Below, one piece after another: positions 8,482 through 59,919 of a stretch of DNA of 64,000 nt. This DNA is from Candidatus Venteria ishoeyi. Lineage in GTDB: Bacteria; Pseudomonadota; Gammaproteobacteria; Beggiatoales; Beggiatoaceae. Under the pieces are notes generated by a model. The model was not told the origin of the DNA and ran no database searches. It saw only the letters and a list, made by a program, of their open reading frames with translations. Each line of letters opens with the position of its first letter. Positions within the stretch are counted from its first letter, which is position 1. Both the position numbers and the translations under genes were made by a program. The DNA lies in the NCBI RefSeq assembly GCF_030378065.1, contig NZ_JAUCGJ010000001.1, positions 1 through 64,000 of the forward strand, read 5' to 3'.

Positions 8482-9870
8482 TTACGGTTTTTTATCCAAT
8501 TGCAATTTTTTCAAACGATAGCGCAAGGTACTGAAAGTCAGGCCCAAGAGTTTAGCTGCCTGAGTTTTGTTCCAGCGGGTTTGTTCCAGGGCTTTGAGTA
8601 TGGTTTCTTTTTCAACATTATTCAGTAATGGATCCAGTGATGCATCACCTGTAGCCTGCTCATTGCTTGTCAACTGTTCCACATCAGAATGAATGACACA
8701 GGCGGTATAAAGCTCAGCTTCAGGCAGTTGTAAGTCTTCTGCCTCAATTTTATTGTCTTCACACAAGGTCATTGCCCGCTCAAGAATATTTTCCAATTCC
8801 CGGACATTGCCTGGAAAAGGATAGTTTAATAAGGCATCCATCGCGGCTGTGCTGAGGCTCGGCAAATGATTTTCCTGGTTATTGGTGTCTTGTAATGTCA
8901 GGCGCAAAAAAATATGTTCAATCAGGGCAGAAATATCATCCTGGCGTTCACGCAGGGGCGGCACATGCACTTCAATGACATTAATCCGGTAAAATAAATC
9001 CTGACGAAAATGCCCCTCTTGCACCAGTTTAACCAAATCTTTATGGGTTGCGCTGAGTATACGCACATCCACTGCAATTTCCTGTTGTGAGCCAACCGCA
9101 CGTACTTTTTTCTCCTGAATTGCACGCAGTAACTTAACCTGCATCCCCAGGGGTAAATCTGCAATCTCATCCAGAAACAAAGTGCCACCTTGCGCTGCCT
9201 GGAATAAGCCGGGTTTATCGGCTAAAGCCCCGGTAAAACTGCCTTTTTTATGCCCAAAAAATTCACTTTCCATTAATTCGCTGGGAATCGCGCCGCAGTT
9301 CACCGGAATAAATGCATTATCACAACGTGCTCCCTGGCTGTGAATCAGGCGCGCAACCAATTCCTTGCCAGTACCGGATTCGCCACTGATATAAGCGGGA
9401 GCCTGACTTCTTGCTAATTTGGCAATGGTCTTTTTCAAGCATTGTATGGGTTGTGAGTTACCTGTCAGCATTGGGGTGTCAGGTAAATTGTGACGTAAAT
9501 TCAATTTCAGCGCATTACTGGTGATATCCCGTAAACTTTTCAGGTTTACCGGTTTTGAGAGAAAGTCAAAAGCACCGGCTTTTAAGGCATTAATAGCGGT
9601 TTCCATACTGCCATAGGCAGTAATCACAGCGACCGGTATATGGGGGTGCTGTTGCTGAATATAACGCACTAATTCAATGCCATCACCATCGGGTAGTTTC
9701 ATGTCGGTAAAACACAGATGAATTTCCCGGTTTTGTAAACAGCGTTGTGCGGTTGCGAGGTCTGCGGCGGTTAAACATTCAACAGGTGGCACCATACGGG
9801 CCAGGCTCAGACTCAGGGTTTCCCGAATATCCGGTTCATCATCAACAATTAAACAGCAAGGGGTATTCAT
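8482..9870 (-). CDS. pilR: Sigma-54-dependent response regulator, PilR-like
   Basis: NtrC-type activator expected to switch on pilin gene transcription with RpoN. The 462 residues comprise a receiver domain with phospho-acceptor D56 in FTDMKLP, an AAA+ domain with Walker A GESGTGKE and the sigma-54 contact loop GSFTGA, and a C-terminal Fis-type helix-turn-helix (NKTQAAKLLG...). The start at 9870 (MNTPCCLIVDDEPD) places the receiver at the N-terminus; upstream in-frame codons run into pilS. It is 5 nt downstream of the kinase gene. rpoN is also in this window. Target genes are inferred by homology. Confidence 0.87.
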   Translation of the reverse strand: MNTPCCLIVDDEPDIRETLSLSLARMVPPVECLTAADLATAQRCLQNREIHLCFTDMKLPDGDGIELVRYIQQQHPHIPVAVITAYGSMETAINALKAGAFDFLSKPVNLKSLRDITSNALKLNLRHNLPDTPMLTGNSQPIQCLKKTIAKLARSQAPAYISGESGTGKELVARLIHSQGARCDNAFIPVNCGAIPSELMESEFFGHKKGSFTGALADKPGLFQAAQGGTLFLDEIADLPLGMQVKLLRAIQEKKVRAVGSQQEIAVDVRILSATHKDLVKLVQEGHFRQDLFYRINVIEVHVPPLRERQDDISALIEHIFLRLTLQDTNNQENHLPSLSTAAMDALLNYPFPGNVRELENILERAMTLCEDNKIEAEDLQLPEAELYTACVIHSDVEQLTSNEQATGDASLDPLLNNVEKETILKALEQTRWNKTQAAKLLGLTFSTLRYRLKKLQLDKKP

Positions 9871-9875
9871 GAATA

Positions 9876-11516
9876 TCAGTTTCCATGATTTGTTTGAAAG
9901 ACAACAAAATGGATGCGAAAACGACAACCTGTTTGACTGTTTTCGATCAGATCCAATACGCCGCGATTGACTGCGCATAATTCTCTTGCAAGATATAAAC
10001 CCAGTCCCGTACCGTGGGTTTCGGTGGTAAAAAATGGTTCAAAAACTTGTTTTAAAACAGATTCACTCATACCTCGTCCATTGTCCTGTATGTCGAGATA
10101 AATGCGTTTAGCTTCAGGATTTTTGCCGCAAGTAATCGATAATAAGGGTTGTTTTTGGCTATAGCGCAATCCATTTTCGCATAAATTCCATAGCACCTGG
10201 TGTAATTGTATGGGATCAAAATCAATATGCAGTGGCTCAGTGCTGATATTTAATAAAATATCAGCATCACTGAGCTGATTTTGTTCTTTAAATTCAATAA
10301 TAAAGTTTTCCAGCCAGCTATTGAGCAATAATTTCTGATTGTTACTTTCTTGCTGGCGACTCAGTTGCAGCACATTTTCAATAATCGTATTCACCCGCTG
10401 ACAATGTTTTAAGATCATGCTGGATAAATCTTTATCTGCCACGCTTAAACCCGGTGATTCTTCCAGTAATTGTCCCGCCTGACTGATGGCAGCCAGAGGG
10501 TTACGCACTTCATGCGCAATACTGGCAGTTAAACGGCCTAATGAAGCCAGTTTTAATTGCTGTGCGCGTTGTGTGGTCAGGGTGGCATCTTCCAGCAGAA
10601 TTAATGAGCTGACCGCACCTGCGCCATATAAGCGGGTGAAACTGGCAATCACTTCCACTTCTCCATGCTGTGGCTTAAATAATAAAGAAGCAGAGCGTCT
10701 GCCACGCCGCCAACTGCGCAGCGATTCTGCCAGTGAGGGCAATAACTCATTTAAGTTTTGTAACAGGGGGTTTGGAGCCAGCCCCAGCAAACGGATACTG
10801 GCTTCATTACATAGACGAACCTTACCCAGGGTATCTATCACCAAAATTCCGGTATGAATATGCTGCACAATCTGTTCATTTAATTGCGCCAGATGTTCAA
10901 CATGGATACCGCGTTGTCGCGCCAGGGCTTCCGTAGTACGAATGCGTTGGCTGAGGATATGCACCAGAAGTGCAGAGGTGAAAAAAACTGCGCCTAACAT
11001 GCCCGCCTGGGTATAACTGGTTTGCAGGAAAACATGATAAATACTGGCGTAGACTTCTTGCAGTAACACTGCAAGACTGGCAATAGCCGCAAAGAAAAAT
11101 GCGGTGCGCCCTTCTGTCAGCATACTGCAACCAGCAATGGTGACCACCAGTAATACCCCGACACCACTGGTCAGACCACCGCTGGCATACATCAATAAGG
11201 TAATCGTTAAAATATCCCAGATACCCTGTAATAATACCTGTGCATTAAAATTCCACCACTGTAAATGGATTAAAATTTCGCTGATAAGCGTAAACAGAAA
11301 ATAAACCGCAGCGACCACCAGATAAAGTTCAGGTTTATAACTGCCAAAAAAATTGGGCGCAACATTGGTGATATAGGTGGAAATAAACAAGGCCGACAGT
11401 ACCAGACGGTACACATTAAACAGGCGTAATAATTTCCATTCTTTATTCTGCAATGGTTTTTTTTCTGGTGGCGGTGTATCAATATACGGCGGAGACGTAA
11501 AAGAAATAAAACTCAC
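9876..11516 (-). CDS. pilS: PilS-like membrane sensor histidine kinase
   Basis: The 546-residue partner of the downstream regulator. About six hydrophobic segments lie in residues 30-190, then a PAS-like region (HIHTGILVIDTLGKV), a HisKA box SIAHEVRNPLAAI with H335, and an ATPase domain with WNLCENGLRYS, QDNGRGM and GTGLGL motifs intact. This is the PilS layout of type IV pilus regulation. It is first in a two-gene operon with pilR. Confidence 0.87.
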   Translation of the reverse strand: MSFISFTSPPYIDTPPPEKKPLQNKEWKLLRLFNVYRLVLSALFISTYITNVAPNFFGSYKPELYLVVAAVYFLFTLISEILIHLQWWNFNAQVLLQGIWDILTITLLMYASGGLTSGVGVLLVVTIAGCSMLTEGRTAFFFAAIASLAVLLQEVYASIYHVFLQTSYTQAGMLGAVFFTSALLVHILSQRIRTTEALARQRGIHVEHLAQLNEQIVQHIHTGILVIDTLGKVRLCNEASIRLLGLAPNPLLQNLNELLPSLAESLRSWRRGRRSASLLFKPQHGEVEVIASFTRLYGAGAVSSLILLEDATLTTQRAQQLKLASLGRLTASIAHEVRNPLAAISQAGQLLEESPGLSVADKDLSSMILKHCQRVNTIIENVLQLSRQQESNNQKLLLNSWLENFIIEFKEQNQLSDADILLNISTEPLHIDFDPIQLHQVLWNLCENGLRYSQKQPLLSITCGKNPEAKRIYLDIQDNGRGMSESVLKQVFEPFFTTETHGTGLGLYLARELCAVNRGVLDLIENSQTGCRFRIHFVVFQTNHGN

Positions 11517-11547: not shown

Positions 11548-13140
11548 TCATTCCTGATTTAATTCATCCACCCCAAACCAGGAAGCCCAGGCACGTAGCG
11601 CGGCATTTTTCAGGAGATTGTTTTCCATATCCAGATAGCGCAATGTAGCAGTGCCAGGCAGATTGCTGGGTAAGTTTCGCAGTTGGTTACTACTGAGATT
11701 CAGCCATTGTAAACGTGGCAGGATAAATAATTCTGCGGGTACCTGAGTCAGTTGATTGTTACTTAAATCCAGACGTTGCAGGTGATTTAACTGATTAAGG
11801 CACAAAGGATAAGTATGGAGCATATTGCCGTTGGCTTCCAGGGTATGCAGGTTTTGCAGTTCAGCCAGACTGGCAGGTAATTCACCCAGCTCATTATTAC
11901 TGAGATCCAAACGCTTGAGCAAGGGCAAGGCATCCAGACAATCAGGGATATGATATAACTCATTACCGGCTAAGATAAAGCGGCGTAAATCAGGCAGTTT
12001 GATGTTTTTTGGCAGATTATTAAGCAGGTTATAACCTAAATCCAGGTGTTGCAGGGTATCCAGTTGAAACAGTTCCAGCGGTAGTTGCGCCAGTTCATTG
12101 CCATTAAAATCCAAACGCAATATCTGCCTGAGTTGTTCTATGCCTGCTGGCAACTGAGATATGGCGTTGTAGCTGATGTCCAAACGTTGCAGCTTGGGAA
12201 AATGAAAAATATCCTGCGCTAATTCAGTAAACAGATTATGGCTGAGATCCAGTTCAATCAGCGCAGACAGCTTTGCAATGCCGGTTGGGAGTTCGCTCAG
12301 TTCATTATCGTATAAATCCAGCCAGCGCAATCGCGTTAAGGCGTAACAGGCAGCCGGGAGTTCTGTAATCAGATTATTACTGAGATCCAGGCGTTGCAGT
12401 TGTTGCAGTTGACTCAGGCTTGTGGGCAGGATTTTTAGTTGGTTATCGTAAACATCCAGGCGTAGCAGTGCTTGCAGATCACCGATATTATCAGGCAGTT
12501 CAACTAAACGGTTATTATTCAGATTCAGGCGCTCTAAACATGTTAATGTGGTGATTGAGGCAGGTAGTTTTTTCAGGCCATTTTCACGCAACATCAAGTG
12601 TGTTAAATGTTTAAGCTGCCCGATGGCTTCCGGTAAAATCCCCAGCTCATTTTCATCCAGATTTAAATATACCAGGGCAGGCAAGGCAAAAAAACTGTCT
12701 GCTAAATGTGTCAGAAAATTACTGTTAAGATCGAGTTTTTGCAAGGATTGTAATTGACTTATCTCTGCGGGTATTTCATCAATGGCATTTTGTCCCAGCA
12801 AGAGCTGTTGTAGTGATGATAGGCGAAACAACACACTTGGGCATTCACGTAACTCATTGGATAATAAATTCAGTGATTCCAGTTGCTGTAGCTGTTGAAA
12901 ATTGTCAGGGAGTTTTTTTAGATAATTATGACTGAGATTCAAGCTGCGCAAAGCGGGTAATTGACACACAACATCAGGTAATTCAAACAACATATTGCTG
13001 CTGAGATCAAGTTTTTCCAGATGTATCAGGCACGCCATTTCTTCAGGTAAGTCAATCAACTCCTGCCCCGCCAGATCCAGCTCAGTGCTTTGTTTTTGCT
13101 GTGCCTCTAAAATAGTTTGCAGTAATATTTTTTGATTCAT
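11548..13140 (-). CDS. Cytoplasmic leucine-rich-repeat protein
   Basis: A 530-residue protein made almost wholly of about twenty 23-residue leucine-rich repeats (pattern LxxLDLSxNxLxxLPxxIxxL). There is no signal peptide, membrane segment or attached catalytic domain, so it is probably a cytoplasmic binding protein with unknown partner. The ATG at 13140 overlaps the stop of the upstream epimerase gene (ATGA at 13137-13140), indicating coupled translation; the frame runs further upstream but that overlaps the epimerase gene. Confidence 0.85.
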   Translation of the reverse strand: MNQKILLQTILEAQQKQSTELDLAGQELIDLPEEMACLIHLEKLDLSSNMLFELPDVVCQLPALRSLNLSHNYLKKLPDNFQQLQQLESLNLLSNELRECPSVLFRLSSLQQLLLGQNAIDEIPAEISQLQSLQKLDLNSNFLTHLADSFFALPALVYLNLDENELGILPEAIGQLKHLTHLMLRENGLKKLPASITTLTCLERLNLNNNRLVELPDNIGDLQALLRLDVYDNQLKILPTSLSQLQQLQRLDLSNNLITELPAACYALTRLRWLDLYDNELSELPTGIAKLSALIELDLSHNLFTELAQDIFHFPKLQRLDISYNAISQLPAGIEQLRQILRLDFNGNELAQLPLELFQLDTLQHLDLGYNLLNNLPKNIKLPDLRRFILAGNELYHIPDCLDALPLLKRLDLSNNELGELPASLAELQNLHTLEANGNMLHTYPLCLNQLNHLQRLDLSNNQLTQVPAELFILPRLQWLNLSSNQLRNLPSNLPGTATLRYLDMENNLLKNAALRAWASWFGVDELNQE

Positions 13141-14030
13141 AATTCGGTATTTGCTATGCAGGCAGCCAGCCCAGCCTTCAGGTTGGGGTATTGGAGCTGT
13201 ATGCCCAATTGGGTGCACATTTTATGGTTAACAATACGTTTGGACTCTGCCAGATAACCCAGCATTTCCGGGCTGAGTTGGGTTTTTGCCAACTCAGCAC
13301 TGATAGATGGAGGACGGGATAAGCCTACAGCATCAGCAACCTGGTTAAAATAGTCTGTCATAGTCGTTGGTGTCCCGTCACAAATATTATAAATTTCTGA
13401 TTGTTTAGTGGCTTGTAACAGTACTGCCACACAGGCGCTGACCAAATCATCAACATGAATCCGGTTGCTGTAAGGTGCGATGCTTTCATCCAGAACAGGT
13501 AAGCCTTGTTGCAGCCGCTTGATGGGTAAACGCGCAGGGCCATAAATGCCGGGTACCCGGAAAATGCTAACCGGCACTTGTTGCTGCTGGCTCCATTGCT
13601 GTAGCTGCTGCTCAGCATCAACGCGCCGCCGCGCCCGATCAACACGGGGATTCAGTGGCTGCGTTTCATCAATCCAGTCCCCCTGACAATCGCCATAAGT
13701 ACCGGTTGTGCTAATCAATAAAATTTGTGATGGCAATGTACTTTGCTGTTGCAGTGCCTGTAAAAAATGTGCCATACGCGGGTCGGTTTGCCCCTGCCTG
13801 GGGGGTGGCGCAAAATAGGCAAGTACAAAGCGGGACAAGTCAATACCGGACAATGCCGCTGCTAAACTAGCTGGCACATCGAGATCGCCAACCAGGACTT
13901 GTATGCCCAGAGCTTGTAGCTGGGACTGACTTTGCTTCCGGTGGCTGAGCGCAATCACCTCACCATATTGCATCCATTGTTGTGCCAGTTTTTGTCCGAC
14001 ATAACCGCAGCCGATAATTAGTATATTCAT
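13137..14030 (-). CDS. NAD(P)-dependent epimerase/SDR family protein (YeeZ-like)
   Basis: A 297-residue extended short-chain dehydrogenase/reductase-like protein. The nucleotide-binding motif IIGCGYVGQKL (G7, G9, G12) is at the N-terminus. Later segments include STTGTYGDCQG, FRVPGIYGPARLP and NRIHVDDL, as in nucleotide-sugar epimerase relatives such as YeeZ. The YxxxK catalytic pair is not evident, so activity is uncertain. Its start overlaps the lipoprotein gene stop by 4 nt and its stop overlaps the LRR gene start by 4 nt, giving a three-gene coupled operon. Confidence 0.8.
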   Translation of the reverse strand: MNILIIGCGYVGQKLAQQWMQYGEVIALSHRKQSQSQLQALGIQVLVGDLDVPASLAAALSGIDLSRFVLAYFAPPPRQGQTDPRMAHFLQALQQQSTLPSQILLISTTGTYGDCQGDWIDETQPLNPRVDRARRRVDAEQQLQQWSQQQQVPVSIFRVPGIYGPARLPIKRLQQGLPVLDESIAPYSNRIHVDDLVSACVAVLLQATKQSEIYNICDGTPTTMTDYFNQVADAVGLSRPPSISAELAKTQLSPEMLGYLAESKRIVNHKMCTQLGIQLQYPNLKAGLAACIANTEL

Positions 14031-15558: not shown

Positions 15559-15621
15559 CAGCAAAACACCCTACCCGTCAAGTCTTAATCCTTGGTAATA
15601 GAGACCAGCCTGGAACCCTGT

Positions 15622-18600
15622 ATGCAAATTGAATTAATGCATCTTATCGCATTGGTTATCGGTATTTTATTCTTTTCTACCTGGTTAACCTGGCGATTTG
15701 CCACAATTGCCTGTCAGCAACAGCTCAATAAACAAATTAATCAAGGGGTTAAGGAAAACCAGAACTTACAAGATCGTATTACCCATAATGCCTTGATAAA
15801 TGGCATTGCCCGTTATCTGCTGACCCAGCAGATGGGTGAGGCCTTAAATTTTACCATCGCCAAAATCGGCAAAACACTGGCAGTCGATAGGTGTTATATC
15901 CTGACTTATTATGATCGCCAGCGCCGCTTTAAGTTGACCCATGAATGGTGTGCATCCGGTGTGCAATCTTTTTTACAGGAACTCAAAAACCTGCCACTGA
16001 GTATTGATGATTATAAACATGCACACCAGGCTTTATTACAGGGCGAGGCATTCAGTTGTCAACAAGTCAGCCTGTTGCCGGAAGCGGCCAGCAAACTGCG
16101 CACGATGCTGGAAGTGCAATCCGTGCAATCTTTTTTACTGGTGCCGATGATGATGCCAGATGGCCCGGTGGGGTGTATTGGTATTGATGCAACGCAACAG
16201 GAGCGTCGTTGGAGTCAGGAAGACATTGAAACCTTAAGTCGTATCGGTGAACTTTTGGCAGTTGCAAAAACCCGGCAAAAAATGGAGCAGGCACTGCGGG
16301 AAAATGAATTTCGCTTAAAAGAAGCGCAGCGTATTGGTCAGACTGGGCATTTTTATTGGAATATTCACACGGAAAAGGGTTATTGGTCTGAACAGGTTTA
16401 CCATATTTGTGGTTTACCGCTGGATTTTGAAAAAAATCCCTTACTCAAAGTTTTACATTTCCAGGATAATCAGATTTTACAAAAGTCCGTACTGGAAGCC
16501 ATTACCCAACGCCGCACGGTCGATTGTGAAGTGCGCTTGCATCCACCCGATAAAAGTCTGCGTTATGCCGGTTTATACCTGGAGGTACAATATGATGGCA
16601 AACAAAACCCGGTCACGATTGCTGGCACGATACAGGATTTAACCGCCTCCCGTCAGGCAGAAATGGATTTGCGCCTTGCCCGTGATGAAGCCGCCCGCGC
16701 CAATCGTTTTAAAAGTGAATTTATTACCAATATGAGCCATGATATTCGTATGCCCATGCATACGATTATCGGTATGACGCACCTGGCGCTGCACAGCCAT
16801 TTAAGCAACCAGCAAGCCGATTATCTCAATAAGATTCAGCAATCGGCTTACCATTTACTGAATATTTTTAACAATCTGATCGACTTTTCCCAGACTGAAA
16901 CCCAAACCCTTAAGCTGGAGCATATTGACTTTCGGCTGGATGATATGTTGAATAATCTTGCGCAATTATTGTTGCCGATTGTCACTAAAAAACAAATCCA
17001 GTTACAATTCTCCTGCACTGAAAATGTACCACGTTCACTCAATGGTGATCCCTTGCGACTGGGACAAATTTTATTAAACCTGATTGACACATTGTTAAAA
17101 TTTACACCACATCAGGAAAAAATACAGATTAGCACCCAATTAAAACAAGCTGATGAGCAACAGATTGTTTTGCAGTTTATTATTAAAAATAAAATCATAG
17201 ATAGCAAACTCAAGCCCTTGAAATCCTTGTTTGATTTATTTCTCTCCAGTCAGATGCAGTCGGGTGAACACATGACGGGCGCAGGCTTGAGTATGATTTT
17301 AAGTCGACGTTTAATTGAAATGATGGGGGGAGAAACACAAGCGCCAACGCAGCAGGAAACTGCATTTTGTTTTTCAATTGTCCTGCAACGGGCACAACAA
17401 AAATTGGATAAAACACAAATCACAGCGAACTTTAATGAAAAGCTGCCTCAACACCCGCATGTGCAGTCACATACTTATTCAGATTTGGATTTGTCGCTGG
17501 AACACTGTTTTGAAATGGAACCGGATACCAATGGCAGCTTGCATGAATTACAAGATGACTGGCAACTTAAGGCCATTACCGGTGCGCATGTCTTACTGGT
17601 TGAAGATAACCGGGTAAATGAACAGGTTGCCAGAGAGCTATTGGAAATTGCTGGACTGAAAGTGAAATCAGTCAACAATGGGCCGGAAGCCTTGCGCGCC
17701 ATTGCAGAAATTCCGTTTCATCTGGTGCTGATGGATATTGGTCTGCCGGATATGGATGGTTATGAAATCACCATGCGTATTCGGCATGATACCCGCTTCC
17801 AGCACCTGCCGATTATTGCAACCACTGCTTATGCCTTGCCTGAAGACATTGAAAAGTGCCTGGCTTGTGGCATGAATGATCATCTGGCAAAACCCATCAG
17901 GCCGAAAGCACTGAAACATATTCTGGTGCGCTGGATTCCTCCACTGCATGTATTAGCGCACTGTAAACAGTTCAATGATCCCGCGCATTCCATTCCCTTA
18001 CCACCGCAATTACCCGGTATTAACTTGCAAATGGCATTAGAGGAAATGCCGGGAGAGTCACAAACACTTTGTCATTTATTACAACAGTTTTACCAGAATC
18101 ATTATGCTTATCTGGAGCGTCTGGAATCTGCAATTTTATGGCATGACAAACCCGCCATACAAACCATGACCCAGCAACTGGAAGCACTGACGACAAAAAT
18201 TGGTGCACAGGATTTACAGCAAGCTGCCAGAGCCTTGCAACAACACAGTCAGCAGACAAGTCAAGCAATCTCATTGGAAGATGTGCAGTGGCAGACATTC
18301 GCAAATACTTTCCACACAGTTTTCAAATCATTGCGCATCCTGCTGTTTTCTAATCACAATGGCCTGAAGCAAACCGATTTGCCGCAATTACTGTCTGAAC
18401 GCCGACATTTACATGTGGTTGCTGGCGTGGTGTACAACCCTCAGCAACAAATACTCTTAGCCCGTCGTCACCATCATCAGGAGCAAGGGGGATTATGGGA
18501 GTTTCCCGGTGGTAAACGTGAAACCGGAGAAGCCCCTTTTTCCGCCCTGCAACGGGAATTTCAGGAAGAAATTGGTATTCACATCAAACAAGCCAGACCT

Positions 18601-19353
18601 TTAATTCGGATTTTCCATGATTATCCTGAAAAATCTATTTTATTGGATGTCTGGCAGGTTGAAGCCTGGAAAGGTACGGCGCAAGGATTGGAAGCACAGG
18701 AAATCAAATGGGTGGCACCCACGCAATTACATTATTTTAATTTCCCTGCCGCCAATCAACCGATATTACGCGCCATAGAATTACCGGATCGTTATCTCAT
18801 TACCCCTGAACCTGACAGTCTTTATAATATAGAACGCTTTATGCAGCATCTGGAAAACTCGCTGAAATCCGGTGTGCGCTTGGTGCAACTGCGCAGTAAA
18901 TACTTATCCGCCACAGATTATCAACAATACGCGGAGCGGGTTTTTGAGTGTTGTCAGACTTATCAGGCTAAGTTATTACTCAACCAGATACTAGTGGAAA
19001 AAGATGCCGTTCCTGCGCATGGTCTGCACTTGAATGGTCAGCAATTACAACAATGTGACAGCCGCCCTATACCTGAGAGCCAATATTTATCTGTTTCCTG
19101 TCATAAACTGGAAGATATTTATAAAGCCAACCAACTCAATGCGGACTGTCTGTTATTATCCCCCGTCAAGGCTACCGCTTCACATCCTGATGCCAGTCCG
19201 ATTGGCTGGTTGCATTTTATGAAATGGGTGGAAGCCGCACATTGCCCGGTATATGCCTTAGGGGGTATGCAAACTAAACACATCCCCATTGCCTGGGCTC
19301 ATGGCGGACAGGGCATTGCTGCAATTCGGGGGCTTTGGAATGGCGAAGCTTAA
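15622..19353 (+). CDS. Fusion: degenerate hybrid histidine kinase - Nudix hydrolase - ThiE-like domain
   Basis: A 1243-residue protein. Order: N-terminal membrane helix (about 5-28), GAF (50-215), PAS-like (230-345), HisKA with H373 in NMSHDIRMPM, an ATPase region (about 430-590), a receiver with D705 in LMDIGLP, an HPt-like segment (790-880), a MutT-type Nudix domain (930-1050; G964, E970, R978, E979, E982, E983 all present) and a ThiE/TenI barrel (1055-1240). The ATPase N-box reads NLIDTLLKFT and no DxGxG motif is visible; the HPt histidine position is Q851. Signalling output is therefore doubtful. Nudix-ThiE fusions are known in gammaproteobacteria; fusion to a kinase looks unusual. The ATG at 15622 was preferred to a TTG at 15592. 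Confidence 0.85.
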   Translation: MQIELMHLIALVIGILFFSTWLTWRFATIACQQQLNKQINQGVKENQNLQDRITHNALINGIARYLLTQQMGEALNFTIAKIGKTLAVDRCYILTYYDRQRRFKLTHEWCASGVQSFLQELKNLPLSIDDYKHAHQALLQGEAFSCQQVSLLPEAASKLRTMLEVQSVQSFLLVPMMMPDGPVGCIGIDATQQERRWSQEDIETLSRIGELLAVAKTRQKMEQALRENEFRLKEAQRIGQTGHFYWNIHTEKGYWSEQVYHICGLPLDFEKNPLLKVLHFQDNQILQKSVLEAITQRRTVDCEVRLHPPDKSLRYAGLYLEVQYDGKQNPVTIAGTIQDLTASRQAEMDLRLARDEAARANRFKSEFITNMSHDIRMPMHTIIGMTHLALHSHLSNQQADYLNKIQQSAYHLLNIFNNLIDFSQTETQTLKLEHIDFRLDDMLNNLAQLLLPIVTKKQIQLQFSCTENVPRSLNGDPLRLGQILLNLIDTLLKFTPHQEKIQISTQLKQADEQQIVLQFIIKNKIIDSKLKPLKSLFDLFLSSQMQSGEHMTGAGLSMILSRRLIEMMGGETQAPTQQETAFCFSIVLQRAQQKLDKTQITANFNEKLPQHPHVQSHTYSDLDLSLEHCFEMEPDTNGSLHELQDDWQLKAITGAHVLLVEDNRVNEQVARELLEIAGLKVKSVNNGPEALRAIAEIPFHLVLMDIGLPDMDGYEITMRIRHDTRFQHLPIIATTAYALPEDIEKCLACGMNDHLAKPIRPKALKHILVRWIPPLHVLAHCKQFNDPAHSIPLPPQLPGINLQMALEEMPGESQTLCHLLQQFYQNHYAYLERLESAILWHDKPAIQTMTQQLEALTTKIGAQDLQQAARALQQHSQQTSQAISLEDVQWQTFANTFHTVFKSLRILLFSNHNGLKQTDLPQLLSERRHLHVVAGVVYNPQQQILLARRHHHQEQGGLWEFPGGKRETGEAPFSALQREFQEEIGIHIKQARPLIRIFHDYPEKSILLDVWQVEAWKGTAQGLEAQEIKWVAPTQLHYFNFPAANQPILRAIELPDRYLITPEPDSLYNIERFMQHLENSLKSGVRLVQLRSKYLSATDYQQYAERVFECCQTYQAKLLLNQILVEKDAVPAHGLHLNGQQLQQCDSRPIPESQYLSVSCHKLEDIYKANQLNADCLLLSPVKATASHPDASPIGWLHFMKWVEAAHCPVYALGGMQTKHIPIAWAHGGQGIAAIRGLWNGEA

Positions 19354-19366
19354 AAAAGGAAACAAG

Positions 19367-20461
19367 ATGTTGCAAATAAAAACTCAAAAATTACTGACGC
19401 ATATTTTATACCTGGCTTTATTGTTGATGTTCCCGATAGAGAATCAGGCACAGGTCAATTTTGAACAACCAGCACATTTTAAGCTGCTGCATTCCTGTCC
19501 GGCATTTAACTCAATCCGCAAACAGAGTGGCGCGGTTAATTTGAAAGTGGGGCAAACCTATGCAGCTTATGCTGAAAACAAAGCCTCAGGCGCAACGCAT
19601 GTCTATATTGATGTCAAGGGAAAACGTAAATGGTTATCTCTGGATTGTGGTGAGTATCTGAAGCAAAAACCAATATTGAGCCAACGCCCAAATACCAGGA
19701 TACCTGCTGGTACTGACTGCCTGCCTTTTTTTGATAACAAAGATAACTTTATCAAAACAGGTGTTGGTGGCAGAGTGGATATGACGCCCCCTGCACCAAA
19801 AATTGAGGCTTTTGGCAAAGCACTGAATCAGGTTTGTGGTACAGCAGGCAAAAAAACCAGTAGGGCAGAATTTAAGCGTTTATTACAAGCGCATCCTCAG
19901 GTATTAACTGAGCTGATGGTTTATACGGGTGGAAAGGTATTTGCCGGACGCGCAGTACATCAGGACAGCAAGACTTATCTGGATGATTTGACGGAGGCCT
20001 GGTATACCGTCCATGCTTTTGATCATATATTTTGTGGCGAGCCAAAATCTGGCAAGGCGATTGGTGGCTTGCATTATCATGGGCGCTACCAACAATTACA
20101 GGCCAACGGCGAAGCCTGCCGCCTACCCAATTTTAAACGCAATGAAGTGATACCCGGCAGTGTTTATACGATGGGCGTGCGCATGAAACGCGCTGATGGC
20201 GGTTGGGCACAGTTTCCAATCAAAGGCTATGGCCTGACTTTGAGTGCCAGGGATATACTAAAACTGGTTACTCGCGCTTTTGTGGACAATCCCACGAACA
20301 GTCGTAACAGCACTGCTTGCATGCTGGCAATAAAAGATGGCGATATTAATTATAAAACCGTGTTTGTGCGCAGAGCTACGGGCATACGTACATTTTTCCC
20401 CGATGCCACGCCAGATTTCAGGCGTAATTCAGCCTGTAAAACACCGTTGATTTTAGAGTGA
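19367..20461 (+). CDS. Exported EndoU-like nuclease domain protein
   Basis: A 364-residue protein with a signal peptide (residues 1-29, ending NQAQ). The C-terminal half resembles the bacterial EndoU fold: HAFDHIFCGE with H220, then GGLHYHGRY with H236/H238, and conserved lysines further on (K281, K286), as expected for the His-His-Lys site of EndoU-type RNases. EndoU is known as a toxin tip, but this is a stand-alone exported protein and no immunity gene was recognised next to it. AAGGA lies before the ATG, 13 nt after the fusion gene stop. Role is inference. Confidence 0.7.
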   Translation: MLQIKTQKLLTHILYLALLLMFPIENQAQVNFEQPAHFKLLHSCPAFNSIRKQSGAVNLKVGQTYAAYAENKASGATHVYIDVKGKRKWLSLDCGEYLKQKPILSQRPNTRIPAGTDCLPFFDNKDNFIKTGVGGRVDMTPPAPKIEAFGKALNQVCGTAGKKTSRAEFKRLLQAHPQVLTELMVYTGGKVFAGRAVHQDSKTYLDDLTEAWYTVHAFDHIFCGEPKSGKAIGGLHYHGRYQQLQANGEACRLPNFKRNEVIPGSVYTMGVRMKRADGGWAQFPIKGYGLTLSARDILKLVTRAFVDNPTNSRNSTACMLAIKDGDINYKTVFVRRATGIRTFFPDATPDFRRNSACKTPLILE

Positions 20462-20486: not shown

Positions 20487-23400
20487 TTATTTCAAATAAT
20501 CCACTCCCATTCCCCGACTGCGTTCATGGTGATAAAACTGGTACTTCAAACGGCTTTCCAAACCATGACAATCCATACAAAAGGTTTTATTAACATCAGA
20601 TTGGCGTAAAAAGCTGTTATTTATATCACCGTTTAGATCCTTGGTAATGGCGCTGAGTTGATGTAGCGTTTTGGAGGATTCTCCATCCCAATGATGCGGC
20701 GCGTGGCAGGTGATGCAGGCAATACGTCCAAAGCGGCTGATTTTTTCCTGTTCATCCAGCAGGGGCAGTATTTTCGGATCTGAGCGCAAGACAAGATCCT
20801 GATAAGGGTGGCTGAATAACTTAATCGTTTTAGTTTCAGCACTTTGTTTGTCGCTGTGACAACTCAGGCAGAGTTTATCGCGCATCAGCAGTGAATCCCC
20901 GCCCTCTATTTTCGGTTCAAAGTGCTTACCGATGTAAAGAAATGGCCATTCAGGCGAAGCTTGATGGAGGCTGTGACAAGTACCGCAGGCTCCGGCCTGG
21001 GCGGGTTTTTGTTCCAACTGATTAAGGCTGTCGCTGGCGGTGACTTTGAGGTGATGATCCGAGGCTAATACTGCTTGTTGTTGAGGGTGACAGGCGGCGC
21101 AGAGTTGGCCCTGGTGATGATCTTCAACCAGTGCCGGGGTATTCTTTTTGCCTTGATGAGTGGCGTGGCAGCTATTGCAATCCACGCGCTTAATTTTTTT
21201 ACCTGCCAGGGTGACTTCTTCATCCAAAGTCATGTTCACAGGATGAATGCCCTGGGTTTTGGCTGTTTCCTTATCCTTGGCATATTGGCGTTCATGGCAG
21301 GTTTGGCACAGGCTTTGTTGATCCTTGACTGCGCTGGTGAGCAAAGCACTGTCTGCCAGACTTTGATGGGGCTGGTGGCAGGTGTCGCAAGTCAATTGAG
21401 TGATTTTTTGTTCACCCAGTTGGACGGGTTTGTCCAATGCTAACTCCGCTGGATGCTGGCCTTTGCGGCGCGCCTGTTTGGCATCAGCATTGGTTTGTTG
21501 TTGATGGCAAGACTGGCAAAGCTTGGGGCTGGGCATGATTAATAAGCGGGTATCCGCTTTGCCGCCGTGGGCTTGATGACAGGAGCTGCAAATAAGTTCC
21601 TTATCTTTACCCAGACGTGCGCCTTGTTGTTCCAGTTCAGCAGGCAGTCCGGTGTATAAATCAGGATTCTGGGTGTAATTTTTATCCCCCACAGTGGGCG
21701 GTTTTTGCAGGCGTATACCTATGGGATGATTCAAACCGTGCTGGTTTTGTTTGGCCTTAGTATTGGTTTGTTGTTGATGACAAGACAAACAAAGTTGGGT
21801 TTCGGGAGCGACTAATGAACGGGTGTCAACTTCACCCCTGTGGAGTTGATGGCAGGAGCTGCAAATAAGTTCCTTATCTTTACCCAGACGTGCGCCTTGT
21901 TGTTCCAGTTCAGCAGGCAGGCCGGTGTATAAATCAGGATTCTGGGTGTAATTTTTATCCCCCGCAGTGGGCGGTTTTTGCAGGCGTATGCCTACAGGAT
22001 GATTCAAACTGTGCTGGTTTTGTTTGGCCTTAGCATTGGTTTGTTGTTGATGACAAGACAAACAAAGTTGGGTTTCGGGAGCGACTAATAAGCGGGTATC
22101 AACTTCGCCGCCGTGAATTTGATGACAGGTCGCACAAATGAGTTGTTTTTTCTCTCCCAGACGTGCGTTCTGTTGGCTGAGTTCAGTGGGCAGACCTGTG
22201 TATAAGTCAGGGTTTTGGGTATAATTTTTATCCCCCGCTGTGGGCGGTTTTTGCAGGTGTATGCCTACGGGATGATTCAAACCCTGCTGGCTATTATCAT
22301 CATAGTCTTTATGACATTGATGACACAAAGAACCGTCCTTATTGGCAACCCGCATCCAGGCATTTTCATGGCCTTCATGTACTGCCAATACATCTTCATG
22401 AATGGCGTGGGGGGTATGGCAACTGCCGCAGTAAAGTGTATCGCCATCATCAGTTTTTAGCTGTGGAAAGGCCTTGGGTAATGGTGCTTCTCTGGGTTTG
22501 TCCGCTGGCGATGAATGCGGATGCTGCTCACCGTGACCAATACGGGCGCGTGAGTCGATCACCGCGCCATGATGACAGCTATAACACATTGCTTCTGTAG
22601 CTACAGGTAACACGGGTTGCGGTTTGGAAAAAGTATAGTTCTGCGACCAGGATAAGTGACAGGTCAGGCAGTTTTTACGCGATAACTTGGCTTTAGCATT
22701 TGTTGGGATTACTGGATTTTTGCCAATCTGTACATCATCCAGACTGAGAATAACCACCTGATTGCGGCGGGCTTCAACGACATACAGCCTGCCTTGTTGA
22801 TATTGCAGGCCGACAGGACTGTCGAACAGAATGTTCTGGCCTTGCGAATCTTGCAACCAGCCTTGAAACTGGCGTTGTACAAATACAGCGACCTGACCGG
22901 TGTAACTGTCGCTGACAAACAAACGCGCATTGTCATCAAGCGTAATGCCATTGGGACGAATGAGTCCACCCTCTGCAAGACCAAAGCGACTGATAAGGCC
23001 AAAACCATGTCCCAGCAGGTTAAAGAGTTTAACGCGGCTGTTGAGCACATCCACGGCATAAATATAGTCGTCTTTATCCAGAGCGAGCATAAAGGGGAAG
23101 TTAAAATCTGCTTTGCCTTCACCGCGCTGCCCCCAGCAGGTTTTGGTTTTGCCGCTTTGACTGTTGGTACGACATAGACGATGGTGGCGGCGATCACTCC
23201 AGATGATTTGCTGATCTTTGACTAGCAGGGCTACAGGCTGCGCTGCAACTTGTTCAAGCATGGGCAAGTGGATATGGCGCTGGAATCTCCCTTGCAGATC
23301 AAAAATACTCAGGCGATGATTACCGGTATCGGCAATGTAGATTAGCTGGTCACTGATGTGAATATCCATCGCCAACCGCAACTGGCCTTCTTTGCTGCCA

Positions 23401-23627
23401 GGGCTGCCAAATTGAAAAAGCCGTTTTCCCTGGGCATCAAACACCACCACCCGACCTCGTACCCCATCAAGCACATAGGCTTGTCCCTGCTTATCAAGGG
23501 CAATGGCGCTGGGCTGATCAAAATCAGTGCGCAGCCATGTGGTGGATGCAGGGAAAGCACTGACAAGCTGACTGAGAAGGAGAAATCCCAGGCACAAGCC
23601 AGTCAGGAGATATTTGGATACAGGCAT
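20487..23627 (-). CDS. Periplasmic/extracellular 18-haem cytochrome c with NHL propeller
   Basis: A 1046-residue exported electron carrier. Residues 1-25 form a signal peptide. Residues 30-300 are NHL-type repeats (DQPSAIALDKQGQAYVLDG, FNFPFMLALDKDDYIYAVD), predicted to form a beta-propeller. From about residue 320 to the end there are 18 CxxCH haem-binding motifs, mostly in the paired doubled-CXXCH arrangement. Three 91-residue tandem repeats occupy the middle. It lies 4 nt downstream of a tri-haem cytochrome gene, so both likely serve one redox chain. Donor and acceptor are unknown. Confidence 0.88.
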   Translation of the reverse strand: MPVSKYLLTGLCLGFLLLSQLVSAFPASTTWLRTDFDQPSAIALDKQGQAYVLDGVRGRVVVFDAQGKRLFQFGSPGSKEGQLRLAMDIHISDQLIYIADTGNHRLSIFDLQGRFQRHIHLPMLEQVAAQPVALLVKDQQIIWSDRRHHRLCRTNSQSGKTKTCWGQRGEGKADFNFPFMLALDKDDYIYAVDVLNSRVKLFNLLGHGFGLISRFGLAEGGLIRPNGITLDDNARLFVSDSYTGQVAVFVQRQFQGWLQDSQGQNILFDSPVGLQYQQGRLYVVEARRNQVVILSLDDVQIGKNPVIPTNAKAKLSRKNCLTCHLSWSQNYTFSKPQPVLPVATEAMCYSCHHGAVIDSRARIGHGEQHPHSSPADKPREAPLPKAFPQLKTDDGDTLYCGSCHTPHAIHEDVLAVHEGHENAWMRVANKDGSLCHQCHKDYDDNSQQGLNHPVGIHLQKPPTAGDKNYTQNPDLYTGLPTELSQQNARLGEKKQLICATCHQIHGGEVDTRLLVAPETQLCLSCHQQQTNAKAKQNQHSLNHPVGIRLQKPPTAGDKNYTQNPDLYTGLPAELEQQGARLGKDKELICSSCHQLHRGEVDTRSLVAPETQLCLSCHQQQTNTKAKQNQHGLNHPIGIRLQKPPTVGDKNYTQNPDLYTGLPAELEQQGARLGKDKELICSSCHQAHGGKADTRLLIMPSPKLCQSCHQQQTNADAKQARRKGQHPAELALDKPVQLGEQKITQLTCDTCHQPHQSLADSALLTSAVKDQQSLCQTCHERQYAKDKETAKTQGIHPVNMTLDEEVTLAGKKIKRVDCNSCHATHQGKKNTPALVEDHHQGQLCAACHPQQQAVLASDHHLKVTASDSLNQLEQKPAQAGACGTCHSLHQASPEWPFLYIGKHFEPKIEGGDSLLMRDKLCLSCHSDKQSAETKTIKLFSHPYQDLVLRSDPKILPLLDEQEKISRFGRIACITCHAPHHWDGESSKTLHQLSAITKDLNGDINNSFLRQSDVNKTFCMDCHGLESRLKYQFYHHERSRGMGVDYLK
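21461..22279 (-). repeat. Three tandem 273-bp repeats inside the multihaem gene
   Basis: Period 273 bp (91 residues), measured from identical words such as AATAAGTTCC at 21591 and 21864 and GATGACAGG at 21575 and 22121. Each unit begins NHPVG/NHPIG, includes KNYTQNPDLYTGLP and carries two haem motifs. Units are highly similar at DNA level, implying recent duplication and possible copy-number variation. Confidence 0.85.
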
Positions 23628-56873: not shown

Positions 56874-57216
56874 AAGTGCTTTACATAGACAAAATTTAGC
56901 ATTTAATGAGCTACTAACTTAGCTGAAATATAGATTTTCAGGTAAATAATTTCCCGACACCAATTGTCCCAGACATATTACCAGCCCTCAATTTGGAAAT
57001 TTAAGATCTGAAAATCTAAGTACCCAAGCATAATTACTATAACATTCCGTTCTTGAATTCATGAAGCTTTACACAGAATAAATGTTAATACACTACCTAC
57101 TTATAGCTAATATAATGTACTTCAGCAGCAAGCTTCTCAAGCTGTGGCATTATATCAGTCAACTCTTTACAGTATAAGCAATTATGCTGACTTCCCACCT
57201 ATTTAGGGCGTTTATT
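56874..57216. other. AT-rich divergent region before the secreted LRR gene
   Basis: No gene. A TATAAT-like hexamer at 57111-57116 could be a -10 box for the LRR gene; no clear -35. The crcB promoter is presumably also here. Confidence 0.3.
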
Positions 57217-59919
57217 ATGGATAATTACTTAAGGTATTTTTTTGGCCTTATTTTCGTATGTTTTATGACGGCAAGTCATGCGCAAAGCAACTGTCAAAAT
57301 ACAAATTTGACGGGCATAGCAACCCAGGAATGTGAAGCATTACTGTCCTTTTATCACAGTAGCAATGGTGAGCAGTGGCTGAAACAGGATAACTGGAACA
57401 CGACAGAAGCTTGTTCAAATTGGTATGGCCTGGAAGTGGAAGACGGTCATGTCATCAGTATTGAGTTGGAAGCTAATAACTTAACGGGTATTTTAACCCC
57501 GGATTTGGCGATGTTGCCGCAATTAAGTTATCTATCATTGTCGGAAAACCGTATTACCGGTACCATTCCACCAGAATTAGGTACTTTATCAGCATTATCC
57601 GGCTTATATCTGAGTGGAAACCAATTTGAAGGTGAATTTCCCCTTCAATTGACCGACTTGAGTCAGTTACTGTCATTGTATGTATCAGACAACCAATTAA
57701 CAGGTTTAATTCCTCCAGAATTAAGCACATTACCCAAATTGCGGTATTTACGCTTAAATAACAATCTGTTTCATGGGGAAATTCCCAAAGAACTCGCACA
57801 AATTCAGACATTAAAAACCTTAGCTTTATATGATAATTTATTAACAGGAAGTATCCCCAGAGAACTGGCACTACTGGAAAACCTTGAGTTTTTATTATTA
57901 TTTAACAACCGTTTAACGGGGGAAATTCCTGCTGAATTAGGTCAACTGAACAAGCTGCAATGGCTGGATCTAGAAGTGAATCAACTGTCCGGAGAGATTC
58001 CACCTGAACTGGGTAACTTATCCAGCCTGACACGTCTGGATCTCGATCATAATTTATTGGTTGGTACACTGCCGATAGAGTTGGCCAAGTTATCCAATTT
58101 AACCGATTTATATATTAAGAAAAATCAGTTAACCGGAATCCTGCCCCCTGAATATAGCCAAATGACCAAACTGAAAAAAATCTATTTACAAAGCAATGAC
58201 TTTACAGGGCCTTTACCCGAGCAATGGTCTAGTATGCAGGATTTATTATGGCTTAATTTATCCGATAATCATTTTACAGGCACAATTCCCCAGACATTCT
58301 CACAGTTAAGCAAACTGGAACGCTTATATCTGGCAAATAATCAATTAACCGGGATCTTGCCCGTTGAATTGATGCAGCTTACCGCACTGGAAGCTGAGAC
58401 TGGCTTTAATATTGCGCGTAATGCTTTATTCACCACTGATCCGCAATTACAGGATTTTATCACACAGAAAAGTACAACATGGTTATCCATGCAGGCCATC
58501 GCACCAAGCGATATAAGCGTATTGGGTGTTACGGGTAGTAGTGTTACACTGAGCTGGACAGCACCTAATAGCTACGCGCCTTATGATGGCTTTTATCGTA
58601 TTCAATATGCAACCGAACCGGGTGGCCCTTATCTGCTTAATGGTGGCAGCGTGACTAATAAACGCCAGACGACTCACACAATCAACAACCTGCTGCCAGA
58701 AACAAGCTATTATTTTGTACTTGAAACCTATACCCTGCCTAATGAGCCTCAGCGCAATACTATCATCAGCGCAAGTAGCAGCGAAGTCAATGCAACCACC
58801 CCCTCTCTGGCACAAATTGCAGGCAATTTTCATATTGCAGCTTTAACAGAGAACACCCTAATGCGTGATTTAAGTTTTCATGGCAATATGGGCGTTTTTG
58901 ACGTTAATAACGAAGGGGGCCTATTTAGCTTAAGTGTACAGCGTGAAGGTGACCTGACAGGCTCGGCAAGTATTGATTATTACTTTACTCCAGCTACTGC
59001 TGATGAAGGCGATGATTTTTTATCGCAAACAGAAGATGAAGAATACACGGCAACATTACTATTTGCTGCGGGAGAACAAGAAAAATCTGTACAAATTCAG
59101 ATTATTGATGATGGAGAAGCAGAAGAAAGCGAGTATTTCCGGTTTTTCCTGAGTAATCCCAGCACCGGAATGAAAGTCATTGATGATACACTGATTTTTC
59201 ATGTTCTGCCAAATGAACTGCGTCCGGAAATTGAAACTGAAGAAACTGAAATTACGATGTATCCGGGCCAACTGCGCTCACTTATATTCAATGGTGGTAC
59301 AGGTAAACGCTTGATACACCAGCCATCTGATCCGGACATACTGGAAACTAAAGACTATGATGGTGGTGATATTCTAAGCCTGATTGGCAAACAAGTGGGA
59401 AGTACGCAAATTATTCTGGAAGATGAAAACACCCCGCCAGAGCTTATACAATTAAATATTGTGGTTGCTATCCAACCACAAAAAATGTATGACCCAGGCA
59501 GACCCGATACAGTATTTAACTTTCCTAAAAACAAGGTTGATTTAATACAGCCCATGTATGTCCCTGATACAGATGATGCCCAGGAATCCTTACCCATACT
59601 TTTTGTTATCAAGCTAGGTGATCGCTTTTTAGGGGTTAAAAATATCGCCACTTGCCAAAGGGAAGCTGGATGTCCATCAGCTTATCAACTCAGTTATATT
59701 GATGATGATTTAGCCGGTCAGATGTTTTTTCATAAAAGAGTCTTACATGAAAGCCTGGATTTCAGTGAAGACTTATCCAATGTGAGCGGATTCGATTTAA
59801 ATAATCTGGATTTATCCAGTATTGATGAAAACTTATCTGTGGATGTATTTATGGGTTATGGAAAAGATAACAATGAAACATTGATATGGACTTGGTATCA
59901 GGTCAATATTCATGACTGA
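57217..59919 (+). CDS. Secreted LRR - fibronectin III - Calx-beta protein
   Basis: A 900-residue exported protein. Signal peptide (about 1-23, ending SHAQS); an LRR cap with CEALLSFYHSSNGEQWL and a Cys pair; about fourteen plant-receptor-like 24-residue repeats (NxLTGxIPxELxxLxxLxxLxL, to about residue 400); an FN3 domain (about 430-540: SSVTLSWTAPNS); a Calx-beta domain (about 560-660: DEGDDFL, DDGEAEESEYF); and an unrecognised acidic C-terminus. Likely a surface or extracellular adhesion or binding protein; no anchor was seen. The ATG at 57217 gives the best signal peptide. recB starts 2 nt after its stop. Confidence 0.85.
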   Translation: MDNYLRYFFGLIFVCFMTASHAQSNCQNTNLTGIATQECEALLSFYHSSNGEQWLKQDNWNTTEACSNWYGLEVEDGHVISIELEANNLTGILTPDLAMLPQLSYLSLSENRITGTIPPELGTLSALSGLYLSGNQFEGEFPLQLTDLSQLLSLYVSDNQLTGLIPPELSTLPKLRYLRLNNNLFHGEIPKELAQIQTLKTLALYDNLLTGSIPRELALLENLEFLLLFNNRLTGEIPAELGQLNKLQWLDLEVNQLSGEIPPELGNLSSLTRLDLDHNLLVGTLPIELAKLSNLTDLYIKKNQLTGILPPEYSQMTKLKKIYLQSNDFTGPLPEQWSSMQDLLWLNLSDNHFTGTIPQTFSQLSKLERLYLANNQLTGILPVELMQLTALEAETGFNIARNALFTTDPQLQDFITQKSTTWLSMQAIAPSDISVLGVTGSSVTLSWTAPNSYAPYDGFYRIQYATEPGGPYLLNGGSVTNKRQTTHTINNLLPETSYYFVLETYTLPNEPQRNTIISASSSEVNATTPSLAQIAGNFHIAALTENTLMRDLSFHGNMGVFDVNNEGGLFSLSVQREGDLTGSASIDYYFTPATADEGDDFLSQTEDEEYTATLLFAAGEQEKSVQIQIIDDGEAEESEYFRFFLSNPSTGMKVIDDTLIFHVLPNELRPEIETEETEITMYPGQLRSLIFNGGTGKRLIHQPSDPDILETKDYDGGDILSLIGKQVGSTQIILEDENTPPELIQLNIVVAIQPQKMYDPGRPDTVFNFPKNKVDLIQPMYVPDTDDAQESLPILFVIKLGDRFLGVKNIATCQREAGCPSAYQLSYIDDDLAGQMFFHKRVLHESLDFSEDLSNVSGFDLNNLDLSSIDENLSVDVFMGYGKDNNETLIWTWYQVNIHD

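What the first reader, a model, noticed from the sequence alone, without database searches (positions are those of the whole stretch)
15622..19353. Sensor kinase fused to a Nudix-ThiE enzyme, with signalling sites apparently lost
One uninterrupted frame joins GAF-PAS-HisKA-ATPase-receiver-HPt to MutT-type Nudix and ThiE-like domains. The HisKA histidine, receiver aspartate and full Nudix box are intact, but the ATPase N-box reads NLIDTLLKFT, no DxGxG is visible and the HPt histidine is Gln. A sensor controlling nucleotide-pool sanitation or thiamine salvage without phosphotransfer would be new. Nudix-ThiE two-domain proteins are established; the kinase fusion is the novel part.
Basis: partly seen in the sequence, partly recalled or inferred. 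Interest (0 to 1): 0.68.

Follow-up and report, generated by a model that had tools for sequence, protein, structure and literature searches.

The report
Dead sensor kinase fused to MutT
In one sulfur bacterium a sensor protein whose kinase machinery looks dead appears to have been joined, end to end, to the cell's only recognisable MutT-type enzyme; relatives keep the two as separate genes, so this looks like a recent and so far single gene fusion rather than a new signalling system.

Summary
The frame is there as sequenced: 15592/15622-19353 (+), GAF-PAS-HisKA-CA-REC-HPt-like-Nudix-ThiE-like, 1253/1243 aa. Strong orthologues of the kinase half turned up in two other genomes, both of one other genus of the family. 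In one, a Thiomargarita MAG, kinase and Nudix-ThiE are separate genes overlapping by 8 nt; in the other they lie on different contigs. So the fusion is a singleton, most simply derived from a neighbouring gene pair. No orthologue has a full DxGxG or GxGLGL (Thiomargarita keeps DxG); loss of the HPt His, the N-box Asn and the HisKA Thr is specific to the window. The kinase half works most like RetS, a known hybrid pseudokinase, without being a RetS member. The Nudix part is the genome's only hit over the MutT cut-off. The ThiE-like part lacks ThiE residues, as in its relatives, and a separate ThiE over cut-off exists, so thiamine salvage is not supported. A small indel error near 18313-18378 would make it two genes and cannot be excluded without reads. 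New variant of known parts; moderate-low interest.

The parts
15592..19353 (+). whole fused ORF, 1253 aa from TTG 15592 or 1243 aa from ATG 15622
15634..15714 (+). N-terminal hydrophobic stretch, likely one membrane helix (approximate limits, read by eye)
   Evidence: sequence itself; no predictor was run
15838..16266 (+). GAF domain (PF01590, 35.1 bits)
16381..16632 (+). PAS_3 domain (26.7 bits, cut-off 25.6)
16711..16902 (+). HisKA; H383 kept, HExxT motif is HDxxM
17044..17385 (+). degenerate HATPase_c (42.1 bits); N-box Asn is Thr, DxGxG absent, G2 box altered (GAGLSM)
17590..17922 (+). receiver domain (89.7 bits), active-site residues intact
18025..18348 (+). HPt-like helical region (approximate limits), phospho-His replaced by Gln 861; below Pfam cut-off
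18340..18399 (+). junction linker; TTG 18379 and CTG 18391 are candidate relics of the old Nudix start
18415..18771 (+). MutT-type Nudix domain, full Nudix box at 18511-18579
18793..19332 (+). ThiE-like (TMP-TENI) domain without the ThiE acidic and Lys residues

Best explanation
A recent in-frame fusion of two neighbouring genes. The front half is a (probably membrane-anchored) hybrid sensor whose ATP-binding domain is degenerate, as it is in its two unfused orthologues, so it most likely cannot phosphorylate itself: a RetS-like pseudokinase. The back half is the ordinary PRK08999 Nudix-ThiE-like protein, here the genome's only hit over the MutT cut-off, and presumably still does nucleotide-pool sanitation. 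In this lineage the HPt His, the N-box Asn and the HisKA phosphatase Thr have also gone, leaving the HisKA His and the receiver Asp. The most likely remaining signalling role is through the receiver (accepting phosphate from a GacS/BarA-like kinase) or through HisKA docking to such a kinase, with the MutT part carried along as a tethered but constitutive enzyme. Shown: frame, homology, separate genes in relatives, motif states, one MutT-level hit. Inferred: direction and age of the fusion, enzyme activity, partner kinase, any signalling.
For: Frame open through the junction. In the Thiomargarita MAG the orthologous kinase gene ends 8 nt inside a separate Nudix-ThiE gene. Codon score of 18340-18378 in the fused frame is reached by 1.3% of stop-free wrong-frame stretches and 17% of right-frame ones. 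Full DxGxG and GxGLGL absent in all three orthologues, present in 28 of 28 other cores. HPt has most window-only change: 42 sites against 8 and 12, OR 2.15, p=0.009, one of 8 tests. Solved-structure search with HisKA-CA ranks GacS then RetS entries first (molecule names); Foldseek on a low-confidence model likewise. A GacS/BarA-like kinase with intact boxes lies on contig C64. One TIGR00586 hit over cut-off in the genome. RetS: degenerate HATPase lacking the G-boxes, unable to autophosphorylate, takes phosphate on REC2; T428A disables its phosphatase mechanism (PMC5992135, passages).
Against: Single instance; no reads, transcripts or proteins seen. A small indel near the junction would give two ordinary genes, with TTG 18379 as a possible start. 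Just upstream, 18280-18340 scores -1.1 in the fused frame against 3.2 in another frame, although protein alignment supports the fused frame there. HATPase_c passes Pfam's cut-off in all three orthologues (42.1, 28.7, 45.9 bits), and the Thiomargarita one keeps DxG and the Asn, so its inactivity is inferred. The HPt rate test is 0.07 after correction for 8 tests. The C64 kinase is below the BarA cut-off too (462 of 890). The window lost the RetS phosphatase residue, so only part of the RetS scheme could apply; no interaction was tested.
Confidence: 0.55

Rival explanations
1. Assembly or base-calling error: really two overlapping or abutting genes, a degenerate hybrid kinase ending at TGA 18365 or TAA 18351 and a Nudix-ThiE gene starting at TTG 18379 or nearby.
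For: The pair in the Thiomargarita MAG is two genes overlapping by 8 nt; stops lie just after the kinase end in the other two frames (18351, 18365); TTG CCG at 18379 resembles the ATG CCT start of the relative; every other match listed lies in an open frame of 132-457 aa; 18280-18340 scores best in another frame.
Against: 18340-18400 scores as coding in the fused frame only; no run longer than four T there; the gene lies 16-19 kb into a 177 kb contig; long intact frames across the window.
Confidence: 0.2
2. Dying kinase: the fused sensor half has no function left and is kept open only because the MutT part lies downstream in the same frame.
For: Window-specific loss of N-box Asn, HisKA Thr and HPt His; HPt change excess.
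Against: Receiver active site, HisKA His and the PAS block around GYWSEQVYHICGL are intact; GAF and PAS show no window-specific excess.
Confidence: 0.15
3. Signal-gated MutT: the sensor or the receiver's phosphorylation state switches or places the Nudix activity.
For: Intact receiver and Nudix box with GAF and PAS in one chain; the only MutT-level Nudix of the genome is the fused one; in the second relative a different hybrid kinase lies 10 nt upstream of the Nudix-ThiE gene.
Against: No direct evidence of coupling; the model of the REC-to-ThiE piece is too poor to show contacts (pTM 0.29); relatives have Nudix-ThiE without an attached sensor.
Confidence: 0.1

Closest known systems
RetS hybrid pseudokinase of Pseudomonas aeruginosa (PMC5992135; PDB 6dk7, 6dk8, 7n0e)
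   Same: HisKA, HATPase region without full G-boxes, receiver with phospho-Asp; next after GacS among solved relatives by sequence
   Different: RetS has more than one receiver (REC2 named) and another sensor (recalled), keeps the phosphatase Thr, and is not known to me as fused to an enzyme
GacS/BarA unorthodox kinase
   Same: HisKA-CA-REC-HPt order in the orthologues; best NCBIfam kinase match and best PDB match
   Different: 282.8 bits against a cut-off of 890; CA and HPt sites lost; GAF-PAS sensor
DivL pseudokinase of Caulobacter (PMC4211667; PDB 4q20)
   Same: kinase fold without kinase activity, PAS domains in front
   Different: DivL has Tyr for the His; here the His stays and the CA boxes are degenerate; no enzyme attached in the architecture described there
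NF006530/PRK08999 Nudix family hydrolase (Nudix-ThiE-like)
   Same: C-terminal 314 aa, 391.3 bits, intact Nudix box
   Different: not attached to a kinase in any other match listed

Membership tests
NF006530 / PRK08999 Nudix-ThiE-like | score over curated cut-off (245) | tested here: met
   391.3 bits
MutT (TIGR00586) | score over cut-off 97.9 and complete Nudix box | tested here: met
   105.2 bits, 109.7; box at 18511-18579
MutT (TIGR00586) | 8-oxo-dGTP hydrolysis | not testable with these tools
   needs an assay
ThiE (TIGR00693) | score over cut-off 145.1 | tested here: not met
   82.5 and 88.6 bits
ThiE (TIGR00693) | two Mg-binding Asp and the pyrophosphate-binding Lys (roles and numbering recalled) | tested here: not met
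   alignment to ThiE structures; Q, Q and H at these places in the window; in 45 relatives Asp in 1 and 2 rows, Lys in 0
active histidine kinase | N-box Asn, DxGxG, GxGLGL | tested here: not met
   HATPase_c model itself still matches
HPt domain (PF01627) | score over 24.6 and phospho-His | tested here: not met
   12.7 bits; His is Gln
GacS/BarA (NF008318) | score over cut-off 890 | tested here: not met
   282.8 bits
RetS-type pseudokinase | HATPase region without full G-boxes, receiver intact | tested here: met
   precedent
RetS-type pseudokinase | transmitter-phosphatase Thr four residues after the His | tested here: not met
   HDxxM in window; HEIRT in both orthologues
RetS-type pseudokinase | binding to and damping of a GacS-like kinase | not testable with these tools
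   candidate partner on contig C64 only

The most novel reading that the evidence does not exclude
A receiver-gated MutT: a pseudokinase that, having lost ATP use, HPt relay and phosphatase residue, keeps only a sensor and a receiver that other kinases phosphorylate, and uses them to switch or place the cell's only MutT at the membrane, so that mutation avoidance becomes a direct output of two-component signalling.
Probability: 0.1. Interest if true: 0.7.

Novelty: new variant of a known kind. Interest (0 to 1): 0.36.

Why it matters
If the fusion is real and made as one protein, a hybrid pseudokinase is physically tied to nucleotide-pool sanitation. I found no such pairing described, within narrow limits: full-text searches (26, 0 and 5 papers; passages read in three of the 26). 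It also gives a small natural series of decay: CA boxes degenerate in three orthologues, then phosphatase Thr, N-box Asn and HPt His lost only where the enzyme is fused. If not real, it remains a RetS-like sensor gene next to a MutT gene.

Tried and rejected
Thiamine salvage: rejected as a supported activity of this domain. Lineage-wide fusion: not supported; among matches listed and in the rows listed, only the window's genome has a long frame with kinase homology. The match table was cut, so many of its 281 genomes' rows were not seen. Open frames of 494-720 aa around Nudix-ThiE in six other genomes (L105-L110) show no similarity to the window kinase at E 1e-3, and each has a separate same-strand ORF of 404-797 aa in another frame ending 6-78 nt before the Nudix start, so I read the extensions as chance open frames; they were not searched for other domains. 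Two shorter ones (L111, L112; 436 and 418 aa) were fetched and show no kinase similarity either.

Orthologues elsewhere: the scan of genome contigs used two peptide patterns from the GAF-PAS part; 194 stretches matched, 4 encode relatives, 2 strong and 2 weak; it would miss relatives without those peptides. 42 genomes of the order (the same 42 as the family, the window's own included): three over 500 bits, next 141.

Structure: HisKA-CA model pLDDT 61, pTM 0.49; REC-HPt-Nudix-ThiE model 59.7, pTM 0.29 (HPt-like helices 63-87 per ten-residue block, ThiE part mostly under 50). Used only for the order of elements. dN/dS not tried: about 40% protein identity, synonymous sites would be saturated (judgement). 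Promoter and terminator scan no better than shuffles.

Literature: passages of PMC4921024, PMC9503650 and PMC555942 show no histidine kinase-Nudix fusion. PMC9503650 does mention, in phage, a Nudix gene fused to a cREC domain, a relative of the receiver domain said never to occur with a histidine kinase. Searches returned no paper; two searches gave nothing used beyond PMC4921024.

Full report
Observation. Pfam places GAF, PAS_3, HisKA, HATPase_c, receiver, NUDIX and TMP-TENI in that order; NCBIfam assigns aa 937-1250 to the Nudix-ThiE family NF006530 at 391.3 bits. No second copy of the whole gene or of Nudix-ThiE was found in the genome. Added here: the HisKA motif HExxT reads HDxxM.

Relatives. 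Of 57 genomes (the window's own included) searched with the Nudix-ThiE part, 49 have a match at E <= 1e-25; every listed match other than the window's gene lies in an open frame of 132-457 aa, the shorter ones covering only one of the two domains. The full protein in 42 genomes of the family (own included) found two orthologues of the kinase half, both in one other genus (600.5 and 599.5 bits). A GAF-PAS profile in the 42 genomes of the order gave 565, 562 and 538 bits for these two and the window, next 141.

Gene order. In the Thiomargarita MAG the kinase gene (L062 6624-9410) overlaps the Nudix-ThiE gene (9403-10377) by 8 nt, in another frame. In BB31 the kinase gene lies between genes that I read as gmk and aroA (from the translations, not searched) on one contig; Nudix-ThiE is on another contig, 10 nt after a different 1683-aa hybrid kinase with canonical boxes. 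Of 29 relatives' loci (L010-L038) an upstream ORF with kinase similarity was found in 2, these two genomes; 4 had no upstream ORF of 100 aa listed.

Junction. The last kinase residues align to the orthologues up to about 18345; Nudix homology starts by 18400. The fused frame has no stop there; the others have TAA 18351, TGA 18365 and TGA 18396. The 13 codons 18340-18378 score 7.7 as coding, reached by 1.3% of 11,029 stop-free wrong-frame stretches and 17% of right-frame ones; a 10-codon core scores 4.1 (6.0% and 44%) (the right-frame set is the training set). Against this, the preceding 18280-18340 scores -1.1 in the fused frame and 3.2 in another, where protein alignment nevertheless supports the fused frame. 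The balance favours a translated linker but the stretch is short. The relative's start (ATG CCT GAG) aligns with CTG TCT GAA at 18391; TTG CCG at 18379 is another candidate relic. A small indel error cannot be excluded.

Kinase half. Of 32 distinct kinase cores aligned, 4 rows are the three orthologues (one a fragment). The other 28 all have the N-box Asn, DxGxG and GxGLGL or GxGIGL; this set was collected by similarity to a canonical core and to the window, so it is not a random sample. None of the orthologues has a full DxGxG (window KNKII, BB31 ENACH, Thiomargarita DEGIN, which keeps DxG) or GxGLGL (GAGLSM, GARLGL, SNLLSL). The Asn and HExxT are kept in both unfused orthologues and lost in the window. 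HPt passes Pfam in both (53.7, 50.4 bits) and fails in the window (12.7). HATPase_c passes Pfam in all three (42.1, 28.7, 45.9 bits) against 101.7 for the canonical kinase of BB31. Sites unique to window / Thiomargarita / BB31: GAF 33/23/18, PAS 20/14/11, HisKA 19/6/7, CA 26/13/20, REC 24/4/8, HPt 42/8/12, Nudix 24/8/16, ThiE 32/16/18; HPt is in excess (OR 2.15, p=0.009; 0.07 after correction for 8 tests), REC p=0.08, others p>0.15. The other two share a genus, so a longer window branch is expected throughout. A sequence search of solved structures ranks 7z8n (GacS) then RetS entries first, DivL lower (names); Foldseek on a low-confidence model agrees. [quoted passage not shown] DivL and an evolved ChrS pseudokinase are further precedents (PMC4211667, outline and passages; PMC9491836, abstract and outline). 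So a kinase without kinase activity is a known kind.

Enzyme half. The Nudix domain is complete and is the only TIGR00586 match over cut-off in this 98.8% complete assembly; two others score under 40 bits. The genome has seven Nudix matches in all, as do the two relatives. The ThiE-like domain has QLRxK, but at the two Asp and one Lys positions of ThiE (roles recalled) the window has Q, Q and H; in 45 relatives Asp occurs in 1 and 2 rows and Lys in none, and no row has all three. The genome carries a separate thiE over cut-off at 195.5 bits. The role of this domain in its family is unknown to me.

Judgement. Most likely a real, recent, single-lineage fusion of a RetS-like pseudokinase gene with its neighbour, a housekeeping MutT, with further decay of relay sites; next most likely a two-gene locus with a frame error. 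Gating of MutT by the sensor is the bold reading and is neither shown nor excluded.

Noticed in passing
L064 2430-8469 (BB31 contig): Nudix-ThiE gene starts 10 nt after a different 1683-aa hybrid kinase with canonical boxes: a second kinase/Nudix-ThiE neighbourhood in the related genus.
   Followed up: partly
window 19289-20461 (+): Protein with an EndoU-type nuclease domain (PF14436, 90.8 bits) directly downstream of the fusion.
   Followed up: no
window 20487-23627 (-): 1046-aa multihaem cytochrome-like protein with NHL repeats and many CxxCH motifs; near-identical internal repeats seen in the translation.
   Followed up: no
window 11548-13218 (-) and 57184-59919 (+): Leucine-rich repeat proteins; the second also has fn3 and Calx-beta domains.
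   Followed up: no
G000 contig C41 44183-44785 (L113): A stand-alone ThiE-like protein of the same TASHP type (38% identical to the fusion's domain), also below the thiE cut-off.
   Followed up: partly
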